From the IMG/VR virus record IMGVR_UViG_3300033148_001509, positions 1-40,242 of that record: a stretch of 40,242 bases of DNA. One strand, written 5' to 3'. Below, piece after piece: positions 6,429 to 39,602 of this stretch (positions are counted from its first letter, which is position 1; each line of letters starts with the position of its first letter). The notes beneath the pieces were generated by a model. The model worked only from the letters and a program-made list of their open reading frames with translations. It ran no database searches and had not been told where the DNA came from. Source of the stretch: a virus. Made by a program: the position numbers and the translations under genes.

Positions 6429-7629
6429 TCGACTGCCTCCGCTTTAGTTCCTGTAAAACTTGAGGGCGCGTCATATTATTGGCTTTCATTGTTGCCCGAA
6501 TGTCTGATTCTGTAGCATCTCCCATCATTTCCTTTAATTCTGCTTTTTTCTTTTTCAGCCAATCAGCCTGAGTATTTCCCTGACCCAAAAATATAGCCTG
6601 TTCTTCGTAATAATTAGCAAGTTTTTCTTTTGCGGCTATCGTTTCATTTGTCCATTGGATTAATGCATCACCTTCAAGACCTATAGGCAAGGCAACAGAT
6701 TTAGCCAGGTCAAGCTCACCCTTTGACAACGCGCCAAAAGTAACCGCGCCAACCACATCAAGTCCGAGCCTGCGCTGTAATTGTTCCAGTTTTATGGTTT
6801 CCGCTTTAATACTTGGGAATAATGAGATTATCGGGCCAGTATTTGCCCCTTGACTGATTAATGGCGTCACTTCCCTTAAGTTGGTAATATTTTGCCGAAT
6901 CTTCTCAACCATGCCGAAGGCGTTATCAGCAGTTTTGGATGCTTTCTCAACATCCTTGACCCTTTTCGCTGTTTGAACGGTAACATCAGCACGTTCCTGT
7001 ATTTTTGCTTTGGCTTGGTCTCTTGCTTGCTGGAGTATATCGAGTCTTGCTTGGCCGGTGACTTCCGCGCCAGAAGGATCGGTAACAATCGTCTCGCCTG
7101 TTGGGTGAACTTGGATGGTTGCACCGGTATCTAGTATTTCAGTTTTAGCAGATGCAAGCCCCGTTTTTTGGAGTGTAATAATTCCTAGAGTCTTACCCAT
7201 CTGAATACTACTATCCAGCAACTGCTGAGCGCCGGTAAAATCACCAGATTCCATCTTGCTGATAAACAGGTCGGTATCTTCTGTGTTAACAGGCTGGCCG
7301 GTTTTCTGGCCCTCTGCTATTAATTGAGTGCGCCTACTCCGAGCAAAGTTCAGCCTATCTTCATTTGTCGGTAACGCATTAAGACTGACCGCAGCATTAG
7401 CAATAGATGTGGCTCTGCTCCTATCTCGCTGGTTTTGTATCTGTTGTGATGTTGGTACAGCAGCCTCAGCAGCGCCCGTCTGCGCCTCAAGCAATCTCTG
7501 CCTGATAGGGGATTCACGCCGATCTTGGCGTATCTTATCGAACCTTTCCGCGTTTAGCAGGATATTAGAGAACGTCTGACCAACATCAGGGACTTTAACG
7601 CCAAGGGAAATTCTAGGATCTATGGCCAC
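6415..7629 (-). CDS. Putative DNA-ejection virion protein, 404 aa
   Basis: Mostly helical, Gln/Ala-rich protein with long coiled-coil-like stretches (about residues 200-265), resembling internal ejection proteins of P22-like phages (gp20 position). Start is GTG at 7629, overlapping the TAG of the upstream HNH gene; its Shine-Dalgarno (GGAGGG) lies inside the last codons of that HNH gene. No catalytic motif visible. Function inferred from order: S74 protein, HNH, this, the 579-residue protein, tailspike. Confidence 0.6.
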   Translation of the reverse strand: MAIDPRISLGVKVPDVGQTFSNILLNAERFDKIRQDRRESPIRQRLLEAQTGAAEAAVPTSQQIQNQRDRSRATSIANAAVSLNALPTNEDRLNFARSRRTQLIAEGQKTGQPVNTEDTDLFISKMESGDFTGAQQLLDSSIQMGKTLGIITLQKTGLASAKTEILDTGATIQVHPTGETIVTDPSGAEVTGQARLDILQQARDQAKAKIQERADVTVQTAKRVKDVEKASKTADNAFGMVEKIRQNITNLREVTPLISQGANTGPIISLFPSIKAETIKLEQLQRRLGLDVVGAVTFGALSKGELDLAKSVALPIGLEGDALIQWTNETIAAKEKLANYYEEQAIFLGQGNTQADWLKKKKAELKEMMGDATESDIRATMKANNMTRPQVLQELKRRQSSGGA

Positions 7630-8192
7630 TATACTGCCCTCCGTTTGACTAATGGCTTCCCGTGATTCTTATGGTATCCATATTTTATTTCGGCAGATTT
7701 TCTACAGCAAACAGCTTCAAACCAGTCTGAAAATACGCCCAAATGCGTATGTCTACTAGCTTCTGTTGCTATTTTCGCCCTCCATCTTCCCGTTTCTTTT
7801 ATGAGGGATATGCCTAGGATCCCATGCGGCGTATCCTTTCTAATGGATATATTTTTTGAATTTTCTTTTCCTGATACTGATCTGATATTAGCCCATGAGT
7901 TATCATCTCTAATGCCATTTATATGGTCGATTTCATCGTTGGGCATCTCGCCAGTCATATACAGCCACGCAAGCCTGTGAAGAGGCATTCTTACGCCAAG
8001 CACATCCGTCACTAAATATCCGCTTTTGTCTTTTGATTTAAGAATCTTTCCGCTATATCTGGAATAAAATGCGGCGCATGAGCCGTCACATTTGAACCAT
8101 TTGCGATCCCTTCTTTTGACGGTGACTAACCCAGAAAACTTTTCATAATCAAAGAATTCTCTAGCGATTTTCTGAGTCATCTCAAGAGCCAT
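7629..8192 (-). CDS. HNH homing endonuclease with AP2-type DNA-binding domain
   Basis: 187 residues. The HNH core is at about 88-102 (IDHINGIRDDNSWANIR), and the C-terminal part (about 120-180: GILGISLIKETGRWRAKI, then FSDWFEAVCCRKSAEIKYG) matches the AP2/ERF-like domain often found with phage HNH enzymes. It is wedged between two ejection genes, overlapping the upstream stop by 11 bases, and its last codons form the ribosome site of the next gene. Related to the HNH gene at 18546-19055 over its whole length. Confidence 0.9.
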   Translation of the reverse strand: MALEMTQKIAREFFDYEKFSGLVTVKRRDRKWFKCDGSCAAFYSRYSGKILKSKDKSGYLVTDVLGVRMPLHRLAWLYMTGEMPNDEIDHINGIRDDNSWANIRSVSGKENSKNISIRKDTPHGILGISLIKETGRWRAKIATEASRHTHLGVFSDWFEAVCCRKSAEIKYGYHKNHGKPLVKRRAV

Positions 8193-16510: not shown

Positions 16511-18558
16511 TCAATCGCTCCCGGTACTTGTTGCTCAAATTTCAGACTCATTTCGGTAAGTTGCGCTGCCAACTCCTTCCTAAACTGATCATTCTCTTGA
16601 GCTGTCTCGATGTTGAATTGGCGCTGATCTTCGGCAAGCTGCTGCATTTTGATACTTGCGTCTGCCTGAGCCTTGACCAGAGTAGCTTGAGCCTTGATCT
16701 GCTCTGCCTCTGCCAATGGATTCTGAACCTGCTGTAATTGCTCTTGGAGCTGCTTGACAAGGTTGGTCAGTATTTCATTCTGAGCAAGGGTCAGGTCTTC
16801 AGGTTTCTCTGGGTCATTAAAGAACTCTGCTATTTCTGGAAGACCGGAGGCTGTAACCATGTTCTTCAGCACATTATACCGCTTGACCTCATCGGTCATT
16901 GGCGAACCGGCTGTTTGTAATTGAGCATGTAGAGACCACAAAGCCGTTAGCGTCTGGAGAATCTTCTCATCATCACCAGCGCCCAGACCAACCTTACTGA
17001 CTACATGGTGCCTGAACTGCCAGTCAGCAGGATTAACAGACAACTCGCTTCCAAGTATTTCAATCTCAATCTTGGAGTTCTGGAAGTTAGCATCTAGCCA
17101 AGCCACGCCTTCATATATCTGCCTGAAGCCTGTCTCGGCCATAACTCTAGCAACAAGCTCTACCTTAGCCCCAGATGCGTCCTCTATCCCTGTGAATCGT
17201 GTAGCCGTCTCTTCTCCCAGCTTGTCTGAATCAAGCCCCTGAGACGCCAAGAGGGAGCCTGTAGACTGCGCTCTGGCCTGATCCCAGTACTGAACCACCT
17301 GAAGTGCTTGTGTACCGATATAAGGAACAACAATTGGCATTAAATCATTAGCTATCGGGGTGTTCTTAGTTGATCTGACCACCCCATTAGGACGCATTAC
17401 TAGAAGATCGTCCATATTTACGTTGGTATTAGCCCCCATTCTGGGCTTATTAACTGCATAAATATTATCCTGAACGCCTCGAAGGATTGCGGTCTTAATC
17501 AAAGCCGTAGGCGCGGTTATCTCTGCTCTGCTCCGACCGATAGCCTTGTGCGGCATCATGATCGAACTCATCATGCCATAGGGTACGTGATTGAAGACAT
17601 CGTTAATCAATACGACTTCGCCGCCACGCATGATATGTCTGCGCTCTGGTATTCCGTCTCCGTCATAATCTACCCGTGGGTATAGGTCTTCGATTAAAAC
17701 TTCCTCACTTGCCCAGCTATCCGAGGCTGTATAGTCCTCTGACCCACCCTCATCAGCGTCTCGGATAGTCTTTAATCTGGTATTTTCCTGCTCTGAATTG
17801 GCCCCAGCAAGAGGTATTCTTGAAATATCCTCCTTCTTAAATCCCATAGCTAGAAGCTTGCCGCGAGTCATTAGGGTGACATCACCAACCAAATCTGCGT
17901 CATCTTTATCGGTGGCATTCTTGGTCATTCGGAATGATTCAAGCGGAACGTCAACGATCATGACGTTCTTGGTGGTGCGCTCAACCTTAAAGACTACGGT
18001 ATTCTCACCCTCATCCCCGGTATCGTCGGTCTCTTCACGGACTATATCAACGCTTTCAACGTTTGGTTCGCCCTCTAAATCTGATTGTAGAACTGCTAGC
18101 TCTTCATCACTTAGCCCTGTTTTCTTATGTTCTTCAACCTCTGTATTCTCATCAATAAAGTACTTAACAACGGATAATTTCTGAATCTCAGCATTCTTAA
18201 TGAATCCATGAAGAACTTGGAATGACCAAGGCTGCTCTCTGACCTGCCAGTTAACGTATTTTGTCTTGTCTTCGGCTTCCTGCTTATCCTCATCTTTGGA
18301 GGTGATTGGTTTGAATTTAAGTATCTCACCCGGCCCTAAGAAGATACGAGCAAGGGAGGGCATGTCTGCCTCTACAACATCCATCACATCTTGAGATATT
18401 ACGCTGGATTGCTCTGCTACCTCGTCTCCGTATGGATTTCCAAGATATCTGTCTAGTAAGCACTCATTCTCTTTGATGAATGTAGAATTATTCCCAGTCG
18501 CATCATGGGTCAATAAATCCAGCTCTGTAATCAGAGTAGATTCGCTCATTGTGGGCAT
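16507..18558 (-). CDS. Portal protein
   Basis: 683 residues, close to P22-type portals (725). The N-terminus contains LLDRYLGNPYGDE and VVEADMPSLARIFLGPGE; the middle has IPERRHIMRGGEVVLINDV and FNHVPYGMMSSIMMPHKAIG. The C-terminal 120 residues are Gln-rich coiled coil, like the P22 barrel. It forms the dodecameric ring for DNA entry. Start ATG 18558 has GGAGAA upstream, a site that lies in the last codons of the HNH gene. Confidence 0.88.
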   Translation of the reverse strand: MPTMSESTLITELDLLTHDATGNNSTFIKENECLLDRYLGNPYGDEVAEQSSVISQDVMDVVEADMPSLARIFLGPGEILKFKPITSKDEDKQEAEDKTKYVNWQVREQPWSFQVLHGFIKNAEIQKLSVVKYFIDENTEVEEHKKTGLSDEELAVLQSDLEGEPNVESVDIVREETDDTGDEGENTVVFKVERTTKNVMIVDVPLESFRMTKNATDKDDADLVGDVTLMTRGKLLAMGFKKEDISRIPLAGANSEQENTRLKTIRDADEGGSEDYTASDSWASEEVLIEDLYPRVDYDGDGIPERRHIMRGGEVVLINDVFNHVPYGMMSSIMMPHKAIGRSRAEITAPTALIKTAILRGVQDNIYAVNKPRMGANTNVNMDDLLVMRPNGVVRSTKNTPIANDLMPIVVPYIGTQALQVVQYWDQARAQSTGSLLASQGLDSDKLGEETATRFTGIEDASGAKVELVARVMAETGFRQIYEGVAWLDANFQNSKIEIEILGSELSVNPADWQFRHHVVSKVGLGAGDDEKILQTLTALWSLHAQLQTAGSPMTDEVKRYNVLKNMVTASGLPEIAEFFNDPEKPEDLTLAQNEILTNLVKQLQEQLQQVQNPLAEAEQIKAQATLVKAQADASIKMQQLAEDQRQFNIETAQENDQFRKELAAQLTEMSLKFEQQVPGAIE

Positions 18559-19055
18559 AAAAATTCTCCATGAGTCTGGTGAAATCCGTACTTATTGTCG
18601 GCAGACTTTCTGCAACAGACCGCGTCAAAGAAATCATTGAAAAGCCCTAAATGAACCACCTTATAATTTACCTTAACCTGAGCAGCCCATTTTTTTGATG
18701 CCTTATGCCAAACCACTCCCACAACACCAGACTTGTTGTTTTTCGGCGCACTTTGATTTTTGCAATTATCTATATGGGTAATATGCCGCAAATTCTCCCA
18801 CCGATTATCTGAAGTAATATGGTTTATGTGATCCACATGCTTGGGTGGGAAAACGCCTTCCATGTACAAAAAAGCAAGACGATGAGACCTGTGTGACATG
18901 TAATTTATCCCAATCCTATGATACCCGCTAGCGTTAATACACCCTGCTTCCTTTCCTATCAAATTAGATTTTCTGTTAGTCAGCCAAGTAAATATCCCCG
19001 TGCTTGGGTCGTAATGCAAAATCTTTTTTAATTCTTCTTGGGTTAAGTCGGTCAT
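18546..19055 (-). CDS. HNH homing endonuclease with AP2-type domain
   Basis: 169 residues. After an N-terminal LHYDPSTGIFTWLTNR module, the HNH core is at about 73-90 (KHVDHINHITSDNRWENLR). The C-terminal part (SGVVGVVWHKASKKWAAQV, then VHLGLFNDFFDAVCCRKSAD) is an AP2-like DNA-binding domain. It is inserted between large terminase and portal and overlaps both by 4-13 bases. Paralogous to the gene at 7629-8192. Confidence 0.92.
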   Translation of the reverse strand: MTDLTQEELKKILHYDPSTGIFTWLTNRKSNLIGKEAGCINASGYHRIGINYMSHRSHRLAFLYMEGVFPPKHVDHINHITSDNRWENLRHITHIDNCKNQSAPKNNKSGVVGVVWHKASKKWAAQVKVNYKVVHLGLFNDFFDAVCCRKSADNKYGFHQTHGEFLCPQ

Positions 19056-32493: not shown

Positions 32494-32591
32494 TTTTATA
32501 TCCTTTTTGGTTGCTTTAGACATAGTCCTACAAGGGTGGATAGCCTTTGACCTTTAGGCTTCCTGTTACCCATACCATATTACTTATAATC

Positions 32592-32749
32592 AAAAAAAGC
32601 ATTTAGAAGACAAGCCGTAGCAATTATTAATCGGATTTGAACCGATAACCTCTCGTTACGAGTTTGCTCTGCCATTGAGCTATAACAATCAAGATACGTC
32701 TATCTTACGTAGCGAACTACGCTCTACAACTTGTCATCTAAATACTCTT
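32592..32749 (-). ncRNA. Compact structured RNA: 22-bp closing helix, two hairpins and a tRNA-like domain, ending in T7
   Basis: Minus-strand RNA from about 32749. The arm 32724-32745 pairs with 32599-32620: 18 Watson-Crick pairs, three G-U pairs and one U-U mismatch; as a plus-strand RNA there would be four mismatches, so the minus strand is the folded one. Inside, almost without unpaired bases, lie a CGTAG-TTCG-CTACG hairpin (32708-32721), an AAGATA-GACG-TATCTT hairpin (32691-32706) and a cloverleaf (32622-32689). Seven T follow the helix directly (32592-32598), an intrinsic terminator. A TTAACA-N17-TATTAC promoter ends just before it. Lies in a 290-base gap between leftward genes. Function unknown. 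Confidence 0.75.
32622..32689 (-). tRNA. tRNA-like domain with truncated anticodon arm (probably not a translating tRNA)
   Basis: Minus strand. Acceptor ATTGTTA pairs with TAATAAT (seven pairs, one G-U); U8-A9; D arm GCTC-AATGGCA-GAGC; T arm ATCGG-TTCAAAT-CCGAT. The part between D and T arms is about 18 bases, three to four shorter than needed for a normal anticodon arm plus variable loop; the best local fold is CTCG-TAA-CGAG with a three-base loop, leaving AGGTT as variable region. No encoded CCA. It is best read as a tRNA mimic inside the larger RNA, or a decayed tRNA. Confidence 0.55.
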
Positions 32750-32755
32750 TCTGCC

Positions 32756-32784
32756 GTAATACTAATATCCCCGAAGGGTGTTAA
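32756..32784 (-). promoter_or_regulatory. Promoter of the structured RNA
   Basis: Minus strand TTAACA (32779-32784, five of six consensus bases) and TATTAC (32756-32761, four of six), 17 bases apart. The expected start, about 32749, is only a few bases before the closing helix. A small CCC-TTCG-GGG hairpin lies in the spacer. Confidence 0.5.
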
Positions 32785-32785
32785 C

Positions 32786-33037
32786 TTATTCAGCTCCGGC
32801 TGTAGTCTGCTTGGTTAATTTACGAATTTCTTCTAAATCTTTTTCCGATAGGTCGAGACTGTTATCTGGCTTAAAAGATTTGAAGCCACAGCTAGGACAT
32901 ACCTTGTCACCCCATTCTATGGGCCGATGCTCATAAAAATTCGACATTTGAGATTTAGTTTGGGTATGCCCACAGTTGGCACATTTATACTTTTGATCAT
33001 GCCATTCAGCGCAAAACCCGCATTTTATATCATTCAT
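32786..33037 (-). CDS. Small zinc-ribbon protein (83 aa)
   Basis: I start it at ATG 33037, with GAGG upstream, rather than the distal GTG. Four CxxC-type pairs: CGFC, CANCGH and CPSCGF, spaced as in a double zinc ribbon. The C-terminus is acidic and helical (LSEKDLEEIRKLTKQT). It may bind nucleic acid or a protein partner. Directly downstream of the RNA-rich gap. Confidence 0.7.
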   Translation of the reverse strand: MNDIKCGFCAEWHDQKYKCANCGHTQTKSQMSNFYEHRPIEWGDKVCPSCGFKSFKPDNSLDLSEKDLEEIRKLTKQTTAGAE

Positions 33038-33104
33038 AATTAACCTCGCATTCCACCCATTAACCTTCACCTACGTACACTCAGTAACACTCTGGTGCGT
33101 CAAC

Positions 33105-33200
33105 TTATCCTTAAGGGTGTGCCGGATAAGCAGGTTTTCTAGTGCGCTACATGGATTTCGCCCCATCATTGGTATACCCGATGGCGGAAGGGGTTTTATT
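33105..33200 (+). terminator. Plus-strand hairpins and intrinsic terminator (RNA unit A, 3' end)
   Basis: CTTATCC (33105-33111) pairs with GGATAAG (33124-33130). Further on, CGCC-CATC near 33159 pairs with GATGGCG near 33180, followed by GGGGTTTTATTT, a usable plus-strand terminator with an outer CCCC-GGGG. No gene in the 290-base gap 33038-33329 explains it. No promoter for unit A was found, so the 5' end is unknown. Confidence 0.4.
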
Positions 33201-33229
33201 TGGAAGTTGTCTTAGGCTATAATATGCGA

Positions 33230-33335
33230 AAGAGGGTCGTTCCTGATAAACACCTTCAAAGTCTAGGAGACGCTAATCTGCCTAGATGTACTAATAATAG
33301 CCCCTTCATAGTTTCTATGAAAGGGGTTTTTATTT
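33230..33335 (+). ncRNA. Candidate small RNA B with intrinsic terminator
   Basis: A perfect TATAAT (33218-33223) lies after the unit A terminator; its -35 is poor (TTTATT, 17 bases upstream). The following about 105 bases hold GAGGGT pairing with ACCTTC (one G-U), a hairpin TCTAGG-AGA pairing with TCT-CCTAGA, and a strong terminator at 33301-33335. No ribosome site leads into a sensible ORF. It converges on the winged-helix gene. Confidence 0.5.
33301..33335 (+). terminator. Intrinsic terminator of RNA B
   Basis: CCCCTTCATAG pairs with CTATGAAAGGGG (eleven pairs, one bulged A, TTT loop), followed by TTTTTATTT. The T tract overlaps the stop of the leftward winged-helix gene. Clear plus-strand orientation. 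Confidence 0.8.
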
Positions 33336-33608
33336 CCACTTTACTGCTGTATAAATATATTCAAAGCCACCCGAAGGCGCGTCTACTTGCTCTCTGATTA
33401 GATATCCTTTCCAAAACAATTTATTGAGTCTTGAGGATGCGTTCTGCGCGCTAATCCCCCACTTTTCTGCTAAACTGTTTGTCTGTATTCCTTTGCTTGC
33501 AAGCTTAATTATTTTCGCCTGAGAAGCAGATATCATTAAATCTTTAATTCTTGTGCGGTGCTTTAATATCGACGATCTTAATTCAGCATCTCTTTCAACA
33601 TCTCTCAT
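33330..33608 (-). CDS. Winged-helix DNA-binding protein (MarR-like, 92 aa)
   Basis: After a charged helix, residues about 30-85 form a winged helix: SQAKIIKLASKGIQTNSLA, EKWGISAQNASSRLNKLFWK, GYLIREQVD and an aromatic wing (GGFEYIYTAVKWK). Such short proteins act as phage regulators. AAGGAG lies upstream, within one of the two repeated hairpin pairs. A candidate regulator for promoters in this region; binding site unknown. Confidence 0.75.
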   Translation of the reverse strand: MRDVERDAELRSSILKHRTRIKDLMISASQAKIIKLASKGIQTNSLAEKWGISAQNASSRLNKLFWKGYLIREQVDAPSGGFEYIYTAVKWK

Positions 33609-33622
33609 CTCATCTCTCCTTC

Positions 33623-33662
33623 AGGTATGTTTAAGGGCTTACCTAGCCCTGTAATTAGGGCT
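33623..33662 (-). repeat. Tandem hairpin repeat, copy 1 (before the winged-helix gene)
   Basis: On the minus strand AGCCCT-loop-AGGGCT is followed by AGGTA-loop-TACCT and then AAGGAGAGATGAGATG. The stems match copy 2 (34472-34501) exactly at AGCCC/GGGCT and AGGTA/TACCT, while loop lengths differ (the second loop 12 bases here, three there). The first stem includes the stop codon of the upstream gene. Confidence 0.6.
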
Positions 33663-33966
33663 TGGCTTTTTTAATCATGTATTCGTCAAGCTTGCCCCAC
33701 AACTCTTGTGGTACAATATTATTTATGGCGCTTCTGAAAACAAGCTCACACATACGAGAGGATTCTTCTGCTTTCTCTTTATTTCGGATTGCTGTATTTA
33801 CAGCATCCAATAGCTCGATTCTTCCAGATTCAGCCTTTGTAAATAATTCAAGTAATGTTTGATTTTGATCTAAAGCCTCATCAAATAAATTCTCTTGTTC
33901 TCCGGGCGAGCATCTCCACCATTTATTAGGATCATCGTCAGCTAGGTAATCTTTTAGCGTCATCAC
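33655..33966 (-). CDS. Acidic helical hypothetical protein (103 aa)
   Basis: LKDYLADDDPNKWWRCSPGE then a helical middle (NLFDEALDQNQTLLELFTKA) and FRSAINNIVPQELWGKLDEY. Soluble. GGAG lies before ATGATG. Its transcription would have to pass, or start after, a strong minus-strand terminator at 33982-34048. Confidence 0.65.
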   Translation of the reverse strand: MMTLKDYLADDDPNKWWRCSPGEQENLFDEALDQNQTLLELFTKAESGRIELLDAVNTAIRNKEKAEESSRMCELVFRSAINNIVPQELWGKLDEYMIKKAKP

Positions 33967-33981
33967 TTTTCTCCGCTCAAT

Positions 33982-34048
33982 AAAAAACCCACTTAAGTGG
34001 TGGTGTTCACGCGAGGTACTGAATGAACCTCCACCACCCTTAAATGGG
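33982..34048 (-). terminator. Large minus-strand intrinsic terminator / attenuator
   Basis: Arm 34024-34048 pairs with 33988-34009 over about 20 pairs with a few bulges, one U-G pair only on the minus strand, and is followed by T6 (33982-33987). A competing inner hairpin GAGGT-ACCTC sits in the loop. It ends a short minus transcript starting near 34097 and lies just before the 103-residue gene, so it may work as an attenuator. It would also stop upstream operon transcription unless read-through occurs. Confidence 0.7.
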
Positions 34049-34103
34049 CTAGTACTCAGTTTATGTAATCGGACTGGCGTGACACAGTTATTCCGATACT
34101 GTA

Positions 34104-34141
34104 ATTATATATTACCTAACGAGTTATGCAAGTGCTATAAT
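34104..34141. promoter_or_regulatory. Face-to-face divergent promoters
   Basis: Minus strand: TTGCAT (34126-34131), 16 bases, perfect TATAAT (34104-34109), start near 34097. Plus strand: extended -10 TGC-TATAAT (34133-34141), start near 34148, weak -35 inside the minus promoter. The boxes interleave, so one polymerase should exclude the other: a simple switch between the minus attenuator RNA and the plus RNA C. Confidence 0.6.
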
Positions 34142-34147
34142 GTGTCT

Positions 34148-34292
34148 GCGTTCACGCGTACGGCTGCTAAGGGTAAAACCTCAGTAACCTCAGCAAGTGG
34201 TCTGTTACGGGCCAACATCAAAGGCGGTTCTTTGCGGGAGCGCCTTATCTCCTACCCCGTCTGTGGCCTGTCTGCAAACGGGGTTTTATTTA
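34148..34292 (+). ncRNA. Candidate small RNA C
   Basis: From the extended -10 promoter to the terminator at 34255-34292, about 140 bases. Hairpins visible: GCG-TTCA-CGC (34148-34157), GTAAC with GTTAC, and AAGGCG with CGCCTT (34221-34226/34241-34246). AACCTCAG occurs twice in tandem near 34177-34193. The open frame across it lacks a ribosome site and reads like random sequence. Function unknown. Confidence 0.5.
34255..34292 (+). terminator. Intrinsic terminator of RNA C
   Basis: CCCCGT (34255-34260) pairs with ACGGGG (34278-34283), followed by TTTTATTT. The T tract overlaps the stop of the leftward 55-residue gene, as in the other plus-strand units. Confidence 0.7.
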
Positions 34293-34457
34293 ATTTGCTG
34301 CTACAATAATGCCCTTCAATGATCTCTGGCAATCCTCTAACCAGATTTCATACATTTGAGAATATACTTCAACGGGCGAACCTGATTCTTTGATAATTTC
34401 AGGATGATCTACGAGAACCCGAGACACCCAATCATCTAGCAAATTATATCTATCCAT
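34290..34457 (-). CDS. Small hypothetical protein (55 aa)
   Basis: ATG 34457 with AAAGGAG upstream, TAA at 34290-34292. MDRYNLLDDWVSRVLVDHPE then VYSQMYEIWLEDCQRSLKGI. Acidic, helical. Missing from ordinary length cut-offs but supported by a strong ribosome site. Confidence 0.65.
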   Translation of the reverse strand: MDRYNLLDDWVSRVLVDHPEIIKESGSPVEVYSQMYEIWLEDCQRSLKGIIVAAN

Positions 34458-34471
34458 ATCTCATCTCCTTT

Positions 34472-34501
34472 AGGTACGTTACCTAGCCCGTAGTTAGGGC
34501 T
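34472..34501 (-). repeat. Tandem hairpin repeat, copy 2
   Basis: Minus strand AGCCC-TAACTAC-GGGCT then AGGTA-ACG-TACCT then AAAGGAG and the start of the 55-residue gene. Same order, stems and placement (stop codon, two hairpins, ribosome site) as copy 1 at 33623-33662, 850 bases away. Probably an RNA-level element such as a stabiliser or processing site. Confidence 0.6.
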
Positions 34502-34682
34502 GGAACATAGTACACACTATAGCTTTATTTTCCGATAGTATCGTCTGAATAAATGACTTTGGCTCTACGGTAGCTATATGCTCCCATATTTTCGGATCGC
34601 TATATGTCTTAGAATCGAGCAAATCAGCTACCGCTATATCCTCATTGATATAGCGCCTGTAAATAAATAATGTGTTTTCCAT
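34494..34682 (-). CDS. Hypothetical protein (62 aa)
   Basis: AAGGAG lies six bases before the ATG. NTLFIYRRYINEDIAVADLL and KSFIQTILSENKAIVCTMF. Mixed alpha-beta. No family recognised. Its stop codon is part of repeat copy 2. Confidence 0.65.
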   Translation of the reverse strand: MENTLFIYRRYINEDIAVADLLDSKTYSDPKIWEHIATVEPKSFIQTILSENKAIVCTMFQP

Positions 34683-34685
34683 ACC

Positions 34686-34799
34686 TTACTCCTTATGGGG
34701 GTTAGGGTTATCGCGTAGTTTCTTTGCATACGCCCGTACTGCCTCTGCATCAGCCTTTTTAGCCCATAGGTATACTCGGACATACCCAGCTTCTTTCAT
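34686..34799 (-). CDS. Short basic protein (37 aa from ATG), N-terminus probably longer
   Basis: From ATG 34799: KEAGYVRVYLWAKKADAEAV and AYAKKLRDNP. No ribosome site precedes this ATG. The frame stays open upstream and reads QRVAKYTKK before the Met, sequence that looks like the natural N-terminal part of small phage proteins of this sort. That part overlaps the end of the upstream gene at a run of six C (34831-34836), so the complete protein may arise by a +1 shift or the genome may carry a single-base error. Confidence 0.5.
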   Translation of the reverse strand: MKEAGYVRVYLWAKKADAEAVRAYAKKLRDNPNPHKE

Positions 34800-34812
34800 C
34801 TTCTTAGTGTAC

Positions 34813-35118
34813 TTAGCTACCCTCTGGGGGGCTGTTTTCGTACTTCAAGCCGTTGTGCTGGAATCTAAAGTCTCCGCCGTGGGTGTGATTCACTGGAGCG
34901 TGAACATAAGCCCCGGCTGTAACCATAATGGTGCGTAGCTTCTTTAGCATCTTTCTATCGCTGTTGTTTTCTGCAAAGGTGTAAGCGTCATCAAGAGCAT
35001 CCACCAAATCATATTCATATTCGCGGTCTACTTCACAATAATAATTAAGCTCTCGCTTCACCTCTTTATCATCAAAGGCCAGAATAACCGCCATCACCCT
35101 TTCTCTATTCGTTGCCAT
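34813..35118 (-). CDS. Acidic hypothetical protein (101 aa)
   Basis: Second ATG chosen (AAGGAA eight bases upstream). EVKRELNYYCEVDREYEYDL and DDAYTFAENNSDRKMLKKLR, helical; C-terminus has HTHGG and ends KYENSPPEGS. Driven by the promoter at 35149-35177. May be fused to the next reading frame by frameshifting at its last codons. Confidence 0.65.
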   Translation of the reverse strand: MATNRERVMAVILAFDDKEVKRELNYYCEVDREYEYDLVDALDDAYTFAENNSDRKMLKKLRTIMVTAGAYVHAPVNHTHGGDFRFQHNGLKYENSPPEGS

Positions 35119-35148
35119 TCCCATTTCCTTTTCTTAACTTTCAAATAC

Positions 35149-35177
35149 AGTATAGCAGTAAGCGGCTTACATGTCGA
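35149..35177 (-). promoter_or_regulatory. Strong minus-strand promoter with palindromic operator in the spacer
   Basis: TCGACA (35172-35177, five of six), 17 bases, extended -10 TGC-TATACT (35149-35154). The spacer contains GTAAGCCGCTTAC (35158-35170), a perfect six-base inverted repeat around one central base. A repressor bound there would block the promoter. Drives the gene at 34813-35118 and probably those downstream. Confidence 0.65.
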
Positions 35178-35204
35178 GTGGTATATGTGCCATAGGTCAG
35201 TTAA

Positions 35205-35213
35205 TGGTATACT
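35205..35213 (+). promoter_or_regulatory. Extended -10 promoter for RNA D
   Basis: TGG-TATACT is an extended -10 box. No good -35 is seen, as is common for extended -10 promoters. It points away from the minus promoter 30 bases to the left, giving another divergent pair. Confidence 0.45.
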
Positions 35214-35219
35214 TGTGTG

Positions 35220-35413
35220 GCTGGTAATCACGCGATGTGATTGTAAAGAGTGAGGCGTTAGGGTTACGGCTTCTAACTTAATAGTGAATCAACCTCTTAA
35301 ATGCAATGTGTGGTCGGCCTGCCAGCAAGTCCTAGACCTTCTCTGATGTAATCTCTAGGCCGTAGTCGAGTACTGCGTAGTTATCCCCGGCTAGTCTAGC
35401 GGGGTTATTTAAT
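35220..35413 (+). ncRNA. Candidate small RNA D (about 190 nt)
   Basis: Hairpins in order: AATCAC-GCGAT-GTGATT (35226-35242); GTTAG with CTAAC; CCTAGA with TCTAGG (35331-35359); CGTAGT with ACTGCG (one U-G); then the terminator. GCTGG near 35220 can pair with CCAGC near 35322. No ORF with a ribosome site. Fills the 286-base gap between the genes at 34813 and 35405. Confidence 0.5.
35385..35413 (+). terminator. Intrinsic terminator of RNA D
   Basis: CCCCG pairs with CGGGG around a CTAG-CTAG inner stem, followed by TTATTTAAT. The tail overlaps the stop of the leftward 57-residue gene. Confidence 0.6.
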
Positions 35414-35578
35414 ATCATCGTGGTCAGGCGAGTTTGTTTGCTTATACGACCAATTAATTAGCTCTAAGATGGTGCTTTCAATACCGCCATGTCCATGCTG
35501 AATAAAATCAGCAAACAGCTCATCCAGATATTGATGTAACTCTTGGTGACGTTTTTTATGCTTTTCTATTTCCATCAT
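35405..35578 (-). CDS. Small His-rich helical protein (57 aa)
   Basis: ATGATG at 35578 with GGAG upstream. EIEKHKKRHQELHQYLDELF and FIQHGHGG with six or more histidines, then STILELINWSYKQT. This resembles a small phage early protein family of unknown role. Soluble, helical. Confidence 0.65.
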   Translation of the reverse strand: MMEIEKHKKRHQELHQYLDELFADFIQHGHGGIESTILELINWSYKQTNSPDHDDIK

Positions 35579-35590
35579 CTATCTCCTCTA

Positions 35591-35800
35591 TTATGTATTG
35601 GGTGGGGGTGGTAAGGGCATCCAGTGGGTTAAATCCCAACAGTTAGCAATCTCAAATCCGTCACTTTCCCAGTCGTGGTCATCTTCACATACCATCTCTG
35701 CTGTACGCACTATCTGTCTGCCGCTATCACACCCACGCAAACTAATAAGCACCTCTCGGCCTCTTTTCGGCAGCTCATCTCTTACGTCTATCCACTCCAT
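35591..35800 (-). CDS. DUF551 protein (69 aa)
   Basis: The canonical pattern is complete: MEWIDVRDELPKRGREVLIS at the start and WDLTHWMPLPPPP at the end. DUF551 proteins are widespread in phages; their role is not established. AAAGGAGG precedes the ATG. Confidence 0.9.
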   Translation of the reverse strand: MEWIDVRDELPKRGREVLISLRGCDSGRQIVRTAEMVCEDDHDWESDGFEIANCWDLTHWMPLPPPPNT

Positions 35801-38930: not shown

Positions 38931-39602
38931 ATGAAATTATTTATTGATATTGAAACAATCCCAACTCAGAGAGAAGACCTCAGACAGTTGATAGAGGTTA
39001 AAGCTCCGGGCAATTACAAGAAACAGGAATCTATTGATAAATGGATTGAAGATAACCACGAGACAGAATTTGATAAACTTTGGCGCAAGACAGGACTAGA
39101 CGGCTCTCAGGGTGAGATCATATGTATTTCATGGGCTACTGAGGATAATAAGCCAAAAGTCGTTAAACGCGATCTAGGGGAGTCTGAGGAGGTGCTTTTA
39201 GCTGAATTCTTCTTTGAGTTAGCCAAAGACCTTGTTGACCAAAATTCTGATTATTTAATCCAGCCAAGATGGATTGGCCATAATATTTGTGACTTTGATC
39301 TCAGGTTTATCTGGCATCGTTGCGTTGTAAATAATGTAAAGCCTAGGATTCATATTCCTTACGATGCAAAGCCTTGGTCAAATAAGGTTTTCGATACGCT
39401 TTATGAGTGGAAAGGAAATAATAAGGCTGGAGGTTCTTTGAATAAAGTCTGCAAAATCCTTGGCATATTAGAGAAGGGCGATATTGATGGCTCAAAGGTC
39501 TGGGATTATGTCAAAGAGGGCAAAGTTGATGAGGTCGCTGAATATTGTAAAGACGATGTTAGGCGTGTTCAGGACTTATACAAAAGGATGAAATTCTTAT
39601 GA
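38931..39602 (+). CDS. DnaQ-like 3'-5' exonuclease (223 aa)
   Basis: Exo I motif FIDIET (4-9; Asp6, Glu8), Exo II GHNICDFDLRF (116-126) and Exo III YCKDDVRRVQDLY (205-217, YxxxD) are all present, giving the DEDDy-type metal site. Size and arrangement match predicted PolB-like stand-alone exonucleases of phages. It may trim DNA ends in recombination or repair with the SSB-like protein upstream. No polymerase is encoded nearby. Confidence 0.9.
   Translation: MKLFIDIETIPTQREDLRQLIEVKAPGNYKKQESIDKWIEDNHETEFDKLWRKTGLDGSQGEIICISWATEDNKPKVVKRDLGESEEVLLAEFFFELAKDLVDQNSDYLIQPRWIGHNICDFDLRFIWHRCVVNNVKPRIHIPYDAKPWSNKVFDTLYEWKGNNKAGGSLNKVCKILGILEKGDIDGSKVWDYVKEGKVDEVAEYCKDDVRRVQDLYKRMKFL

What the first reader, a model, noticed from the sequence alone, without database searches (positions are those of the whole stretch)
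33061..35413. Cluster of plus-strand small-RNA units set against a leftward operon
Three, perhaps four, units (A, B, C, D) fill the long gaps between leftward genes. Each of B, C and D has a -10 box (two extended) at its start and a CCCC-GGGG terminator with a T tract that abuts or overlaps the stop codon of a leftward gene. None has a credible ORF. Such a regular design within a dense phage genome suggests a family of regulatory RNAs, or decoys, produced early.
Basis: partly seen in the sequence, partly recalled or inferred. Interest (0 to 1): 0.7.

Follow-up and report, generated by a model that had tools for sequence, protein, structure and literature searches.

The report
Small-RNA genes opposing a phage operon
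Gaps in the early genes of an uncultured bacterial virus appear to hold small RNA genes that point against the surrounding genes; other, partly unrelated, viruses show the same layout, so this looks like a recurring but untested way for phages to carry regulatory RNAs.

Summary
Gaps of 326 and 286 nt hold plus-strand units C and D; a 292-nt gap holds A and B. B, C and D each have a -10 box (C and D extended) and a CCCC-GGGG terminator whose T tract contains the TAA stop of the leftward gene. Four such terminators occur in the record, all plus-strand, all here (shuffle mean 0.23, maximum 4). In 95 gaps of ten phage records, antisense-facing terminators number 16 against 2.57 expected. B belongs to a covarying family: in three phages its hairpin pairs in 24 of 24 cells, 6 of 8 pairs changed on both sides. 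In other phages such slots hold other RNA families; C and D have no homologue in the records examined. Unit A is probably not a plus-strand RNA: it belongs to a module, A-ORF-R2-(tRNA)-R1, in five records, whose R2/R1 rod pairs in 72 of 72 cells on the minus strand and 59 of 72 on the plus. I favour independent small RNAs acting in trans. Targets are unknown; an anti-Shine-Dalgarno role and pairing with own start sites found no support. No transcript data exist.

The parts
33218..33335 (+). Unit B: -10 TATAAT 33218-33223, predicted RNA about 33229-33335; hairpin with bulged C 33232-33257; terminator 33301-33326 with T tract over the stop codon of the gene at 33330-33608(-)
   Evidence: homologues L052 1028-1103, L042 6426-6505, L051 2336-2415 (for places)
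34133..34291 (+). Unit C: extended -10 TGCTATAAT 34133-34141, predicted RNA about 34148-34291, terminator 34255-34283 with T tract over the stop codon of the gene at 34290-34457(-)
   Evidence: no homologue found
35205..35413 (+). Unit D: extended -10 TGGTATACT 35205-35213, predicted RNA about 35220-35413, terminator 35385-35404 with T tract over the stop codon of the gene at 35405-35578(-)
   Evidence: no homologue found
33159..33201 (+).
33044..33147 (-). Block A: two covarying hairpins with complementary loops, directly upstream of the start codon of the leftward ORF; probably minus strand
32786..33037 (-). ORF inside the leftward module (83 aa, weak zinc-ribbon matches); replaced by unrelated ORFs in the other four records
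32524..32786 (-). R2-tRNA-R1 rod: long helix with further hairpins and a tRNA at its tip, followed by the R1 hairpin
32622..32689 (-). tRNA within the rod (45.9 bits to RF00005; not found by ARAGORN)

Best explanation
B, C and D are separate small non-coding RNA genes on the plus strand, of about 105, 145 and 195 nt. Each is made from its own sigma-70-like promoter and ends at an intrinsic terminator placed where the opposing leftward gene stops, so the RNA is finished without running antisense through a coding sequence. Several phages use such slots and fill them with different RNAs. B is a selected RNA structure: a hairpin with a bulged C and a 7-nt loop, followed by the terminator. Most likely these RNAs act in trans, through exposed loops that pair with host or phage RNA or bind a protein. 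Shown by computation: anatomy, placement, covariation of B, recurrence. Inferred: transcription, trans action, timing. My odds: B a real RNA gene about 0.8, C and D about 0.6 each, trans action about 0.5 given that. Unit A is something else: the 5' part of a leftward structured module that also holds an ORF and a tRNA-bearing rod.
For: Four CCCC-GGGG-T terminators, all here and all plus; promoter scores above shuffles; stop codons in the T tracts; B fold z -4.66 and 6 of 8 hairpin pairs with compensatory change in three phages, 24 of 24 cells paired, 0 of 500 shuffles reaching the covariation score; 16 antisense-facing terminators against 2.57 expected in 95 gaps of ten records; L066, a phage without a detected portal relative, has a unit with TTGACA and TGCTATACT, z -3.8 and the same stop-codon overlap; 9 of 14 units taken from these phages fold with z of -3.8 or lower, 5 of 14 do not (winC, winD, L055B, L043 and none other below -2.4 excepted; values).
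Against: No transcript data. C and D have no homologue and D folds no better than shuffles. The -35 boxes are weak and the score threshold is met by 5.5% of random pieces. B covariation rests on three hand-trimmed sequences. No sign of pairing with Shine-Dalgarno sites beyond chance: 8 of 14 units against 7.0 expected; no sign of pairing with this phage's start sites. Several antisense terminators in other phages lack a good promoter, for instance three in L055.
Confidence: 0.5

Rival explanations
1. By-products of two-way promoters: internal leftward promoters in the gaps also fire rightward, and the terminators exist only to stop the resulting antisense RNA before it enters the opposing gene. 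The RNAs have no function of their own.
For: D lies back to back with the third-listed minus promoter of the scan, 35177-35149, 10 of 12 matches and extended; a minus TATAAT at 34109 lies 27 bp from the C box. C and D are not conserved and D has no fold signal.
Against: B covaries as an RNA and no minus promoter was found beside it. Many phages fill the slots with strongly folding RNAs. A by-product needs no conserved hairpin.
Confidence: 0.25
2. Cis-acting antisense RNAs of the OOP kind: the plus RNAs pair with the intercistronic parts of the leftward messenger and change its cleavage, translation or termination.
For: Every unit is by position perfectly complementary to the leftward transcript if that reads through the gap (geometry). 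OOP is a precedent for a short RNA opposing an early operon (PMC12197685, passages).
Against: The overlap with coding sequence is only the last few bases, and the stems of B change while the fold is kept, which cis pairing would not require.
Confidence: 0.15
3. Chance: AT-rich gaps with accidental boxes and hairpins.
For: TATAAT alone occurs 28 times in the record on both strands; 5.5% of random pieces reach the B or D promoter score.
Against: Terminator and promoter controls, covariation of B, recurrence in L066 and in portal relatives.
Confidence: 0.07

Closest known systems
Lambda OOP RNA (77 nt, cis antisense to cII; passages of PMC12197685 read)
   Same: Short RNA with its own promoter and terminator on the strand opposite an early operon, ending at a convergent gene (promoter and terminator details recalled).
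   Different: OOP pairs with the cII coding end; here the overlap is only the stop codon, there are three units in a row, and B is kept by structure.
PAK_P3 sRNA1 and sRNA2 (PMC4933390, passages read)
   Same: About 100-nt intergenic RNAs of a virulent phage, one between tRNA genes, proposed to act in trans; function unknown.
   Different: Seen by RNA sequencing and late; no antisense-facing layout is described in the passages read.
PreS of lambda and VpdS of VP882 (PMC12197685, part 1 read)
   Same: Phage small RNAs acting in trans on host and phage messengers.
   Different: Hfq-dependent and tested; no homology or Hfq site was tested here.
GOLLD and ROOL RNAs (PMC12286853, passages read)
   Same: For the leftward module only: structured phage RNA near tRNAs; tRNAs sometimes sit in the GOLLD linker.
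   Different: No Rfam match; the module contains an ORF and its folded parts are smaller.

Membership tests
Phage-encoded intergenic small RNA | Own promoter | tested here: inconclusive
   -10 boxes present, -35 weak, combined p 0.0013 for B, C, D; no TSS data
Phage-encoded intergenic small RNA | Intrinsic terminator | tested here: met
   (sequence criterion only)
Phage-encoded intergenic small RNA | No coding frame | tested here: met
Phage-encoded intergenic small RNA | Conserved structure | tested here: met
   Met for B only; C and D have no homologues, so untestable
Phage-encoded intergenic small RNA | A discrete transcript | not testable with these tools
   No expression data
OOP-type cis antisense RNA | Overlap with the coding end of the opposing gene | tested here: not met
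   Predicted overlap is the stop codon and a few bases in B, C and D
OOP-type cis antisense RNA | Opposite strand to an operon, own terminator | tested here: met
Rfam family of any kind (units A-D) | Match at the gathering score | tested here: not met
   Only the tRNA at 32622-32689 matches; nothing else with E below 0.6 in 32500-35600
GOLLD or ROOL (leftward module) | Match to the Rfam covariance model | tested here: not met

The most novel reading that the evidence does not exclude
The locus is a pair of linked, so far undescribed phage RNA systems: (1) slots at operon stop codons into which different phages plug small-RNA genes facing the operon; and (2) divergently beside the first slot, a mobile leftward RNA module in which two hairpins with complementary loops, an exchangeable ORF and a rod carrying a tRNA or another structured insert at its tip form one large RNA shared by phages with different structural genes.
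Probability: 0.35. Interest if true: 0.8.

Novelty: new variant of a known kind. Interest (0 to 1): 0.57.

Why it matters
Few phage small RNAs are known outside prophages, and a 2016 paper names only T4 band C and D RNAs for virulent phages before its own two (PMC4933390, passages). A layout recognisable from sequence alone (promoter, RNA, terminator ending on the stop codon of an opposing gene) would let such genes be found in many uncultured phages. The linked module with a tRNA on a conserved rod is a candidate for a new large phage RNA.

Tried and rejected
Plus-strand origin of unit A: not my first choice, because its partner R2/R1 pairs far better on the minus strand and three of five copies lack the plus terminator. 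For block A alone the strand test is nearly neutral (64/65 minus, 63/65 plus), and fold energies favour minus in 5 of 5, by 0.2 to 6.9 kcal/mol.

Anti-Shine-Dalgarno role: not enriched, 8 of 14 units against 7.0 expected. Pairing with this phage's start sites: no better than shuffles for B, C or D. B, C and D as copies of one RNA: no mutual similarity. Known RNA family: only the tRNA. Named phages: no DNA match. The gene at 34813-35124 and the exonuclease at 38931-39602 as baits found no relatives.

Rows dropped: of 18 contigs hit by the R1 pattern, four carry the module (L052, L054, L055, L066); 14 were set aside after reading them, nine of these looking like another repeated sequence family. 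The genome-contig hit L056 shows none of the module around the match and was dropped. Of 18 portal relatives, long stretches were fetched for five. The ten-record census left out L002-L004, which came in through another gene, and L051 and L053, near copies of L042. G008 and G009 share sequence, so their counts are not independent. The units of L052 and L054 fail the strict terminator rule and are not in the count of 16. The 14 units were picked by eye.

Full report
What the window is. The record is a 40,242-base virus contig with an SU10-type portal and a terminase of up to 42% identity to named phages. The stretches tried have no DNA match among 50,697 named phage records. The early genes run leftward from about 36.2 to 25.2 kb; an endonuclease VII-like gene and others run rightward from 36.3 kb.

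The units. In B, C and D the TTA of the T tract is the reversed TAA stop of the leftward gene; the same holds for the L066 unit and one unit of L047. B folds far better than shuffles (z -4.66), C a little (-1.39, -1.97), D not at all (0.25). Promoter scores are above shuffles, combined p 0.0013.

Recurrence. I fetched the early regions of five portal relatives and found further records by pattern scans. In 95 co-directional gaps of at least 60 nt from ten records, strict terminators facing against the genes number 16, with 2.57 expected from shuffles; facing with the genes 3, with 0.65 expected. Besides the window (3), six of the nine other records contribute: G004 3, G005 2, G007 1, G008 4, G017 2, G015 1; G009, G018 and G016 contribute none under this rule. 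Of the 18 antisense terminators, 7 have a promoter score with p of 0.04 or 0.045 or lower against shuffles (B, C, D, one in L042, one in L043, one in L047, one in L066), and the three in L055 have none.

Families. B has homologues in L052 and in L042/L051/L053, each with TATAAT just upstream and the 13-mer TTGGTATACCCGA before it. Its hairpin has a bulged C, two pairs that never vary and six that vary with compensation; 0 of 500 shuffles reached the covariation score. These are three sequences, trimmed by hand. One G-U pair favours the plus strand (24/24 against 23/24). A second family, folding as a multi-arm RNA, occurs twice in G008 and once in G009; a third, a hairpin with a C-rich loop followed by a terminator, occurs twice in G008 and once each in G009 and G007. 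C, D and the L066, L054, L055 and L043 units are singletons here.

Unit A. Pattern scans brought four records in which block A, an ORF, block R2, a tRNA or other insert, and block R1 follow in the same order on the operon strand. A search with the window's portal found nothing in these records, without a positive control in that call. The ORFs differ: weakly zinc-ribbon-like in the window, weakly ASCH-like in L055, nothing convincing in L054 and L066 (the L052 ORF was not scanned). R2 and R1 form a rod of 18 tested pairs, paired in 72 of 72 cells on the minus strand and 59 of 72 on the plus, since the minus strand has 13 G-U pairs. Its covariation test is weak: 2 pairs changed on both sides, a number that 105 of 500 shuffles reach, as most pairs do not vary. 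The window stretch 32524-32786 folds to -87.2 kcal/mol, z -5.47, on the minus strand with the tRNA at the tip, against -61.0, z -3.10, on the plus. Block A has two hairpins with 9 of 13 pairs changed on both sides; their loops hold ACAC and GUGU, so they may kiss (inference). A covariance model of A hits 5 of 20 records, exactly these five, with E from 8.9e-20 to 6.2e-15, plus a weak second copy in G017; the model was built from those five.

How it may work. I read B, C and D as independent small RNAs acting in trans. The terminators end them at the last place before antisense transcription of a gene. The conserved palindrome GGTATACC about 40 nt upstream of the B box could be a regulator site (inference; one copy in the window, 0.38 expected). 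Neither an anti-Shine-Dalgarno role nor pairing with own start sites is supported. Two-way promoters are the main rival for C and D.

Literature. I read passages of PMC12286853 and PMC4933390, and part 1 and passages of PMC12197685; the other papers were seen only in listings. Six searches listed no paper whose title or abstract start describes this layout or the leftward module; the library lacks most subscription journals, so this is weak evidence of novelty.

Noticed in passing
33988-34109 (minus strand): A minus TATAAT (34109-34104) followed by a strong minus terminator (34048-33988), just upstream of the leftward gene ending at 33655: a leader or attenuator. L050 5219-5350 has a similar stretch (64.5% over 141 nt, E 0.05).
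   Followed up: partly
L047 8047-8185 and 9158-9283; L050 3718-3812: Multi-arm RNAs with an outer closing stem, tRNA-like in outline, facing the operon.
   Followed up: partly
L052 479-574; L066 about 330-465: tRNA-like inserts in the rod; ARAGORN reads the one in L052 with a four-base anticodon, the one in L066 was seen by eye only.
   Followed up: no
L055 4900-5960: Long arrays of GACCCA/GACCAA and CGACCC-type repeats, next to a partial second copy of the block A hairpin.
   Followed up: no
window 7629-8192 and 18546-19055: Two genes with relatives scattered over L046, L047 and L054 at varied positions, likely mobile.
   Followed up: no
window 33640-33662 and 34479-34501: A short repeat TTACCTAGCCC..GTAnTTAGGGCT lies just before two leftward ribosome sites.
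   Followed up: no
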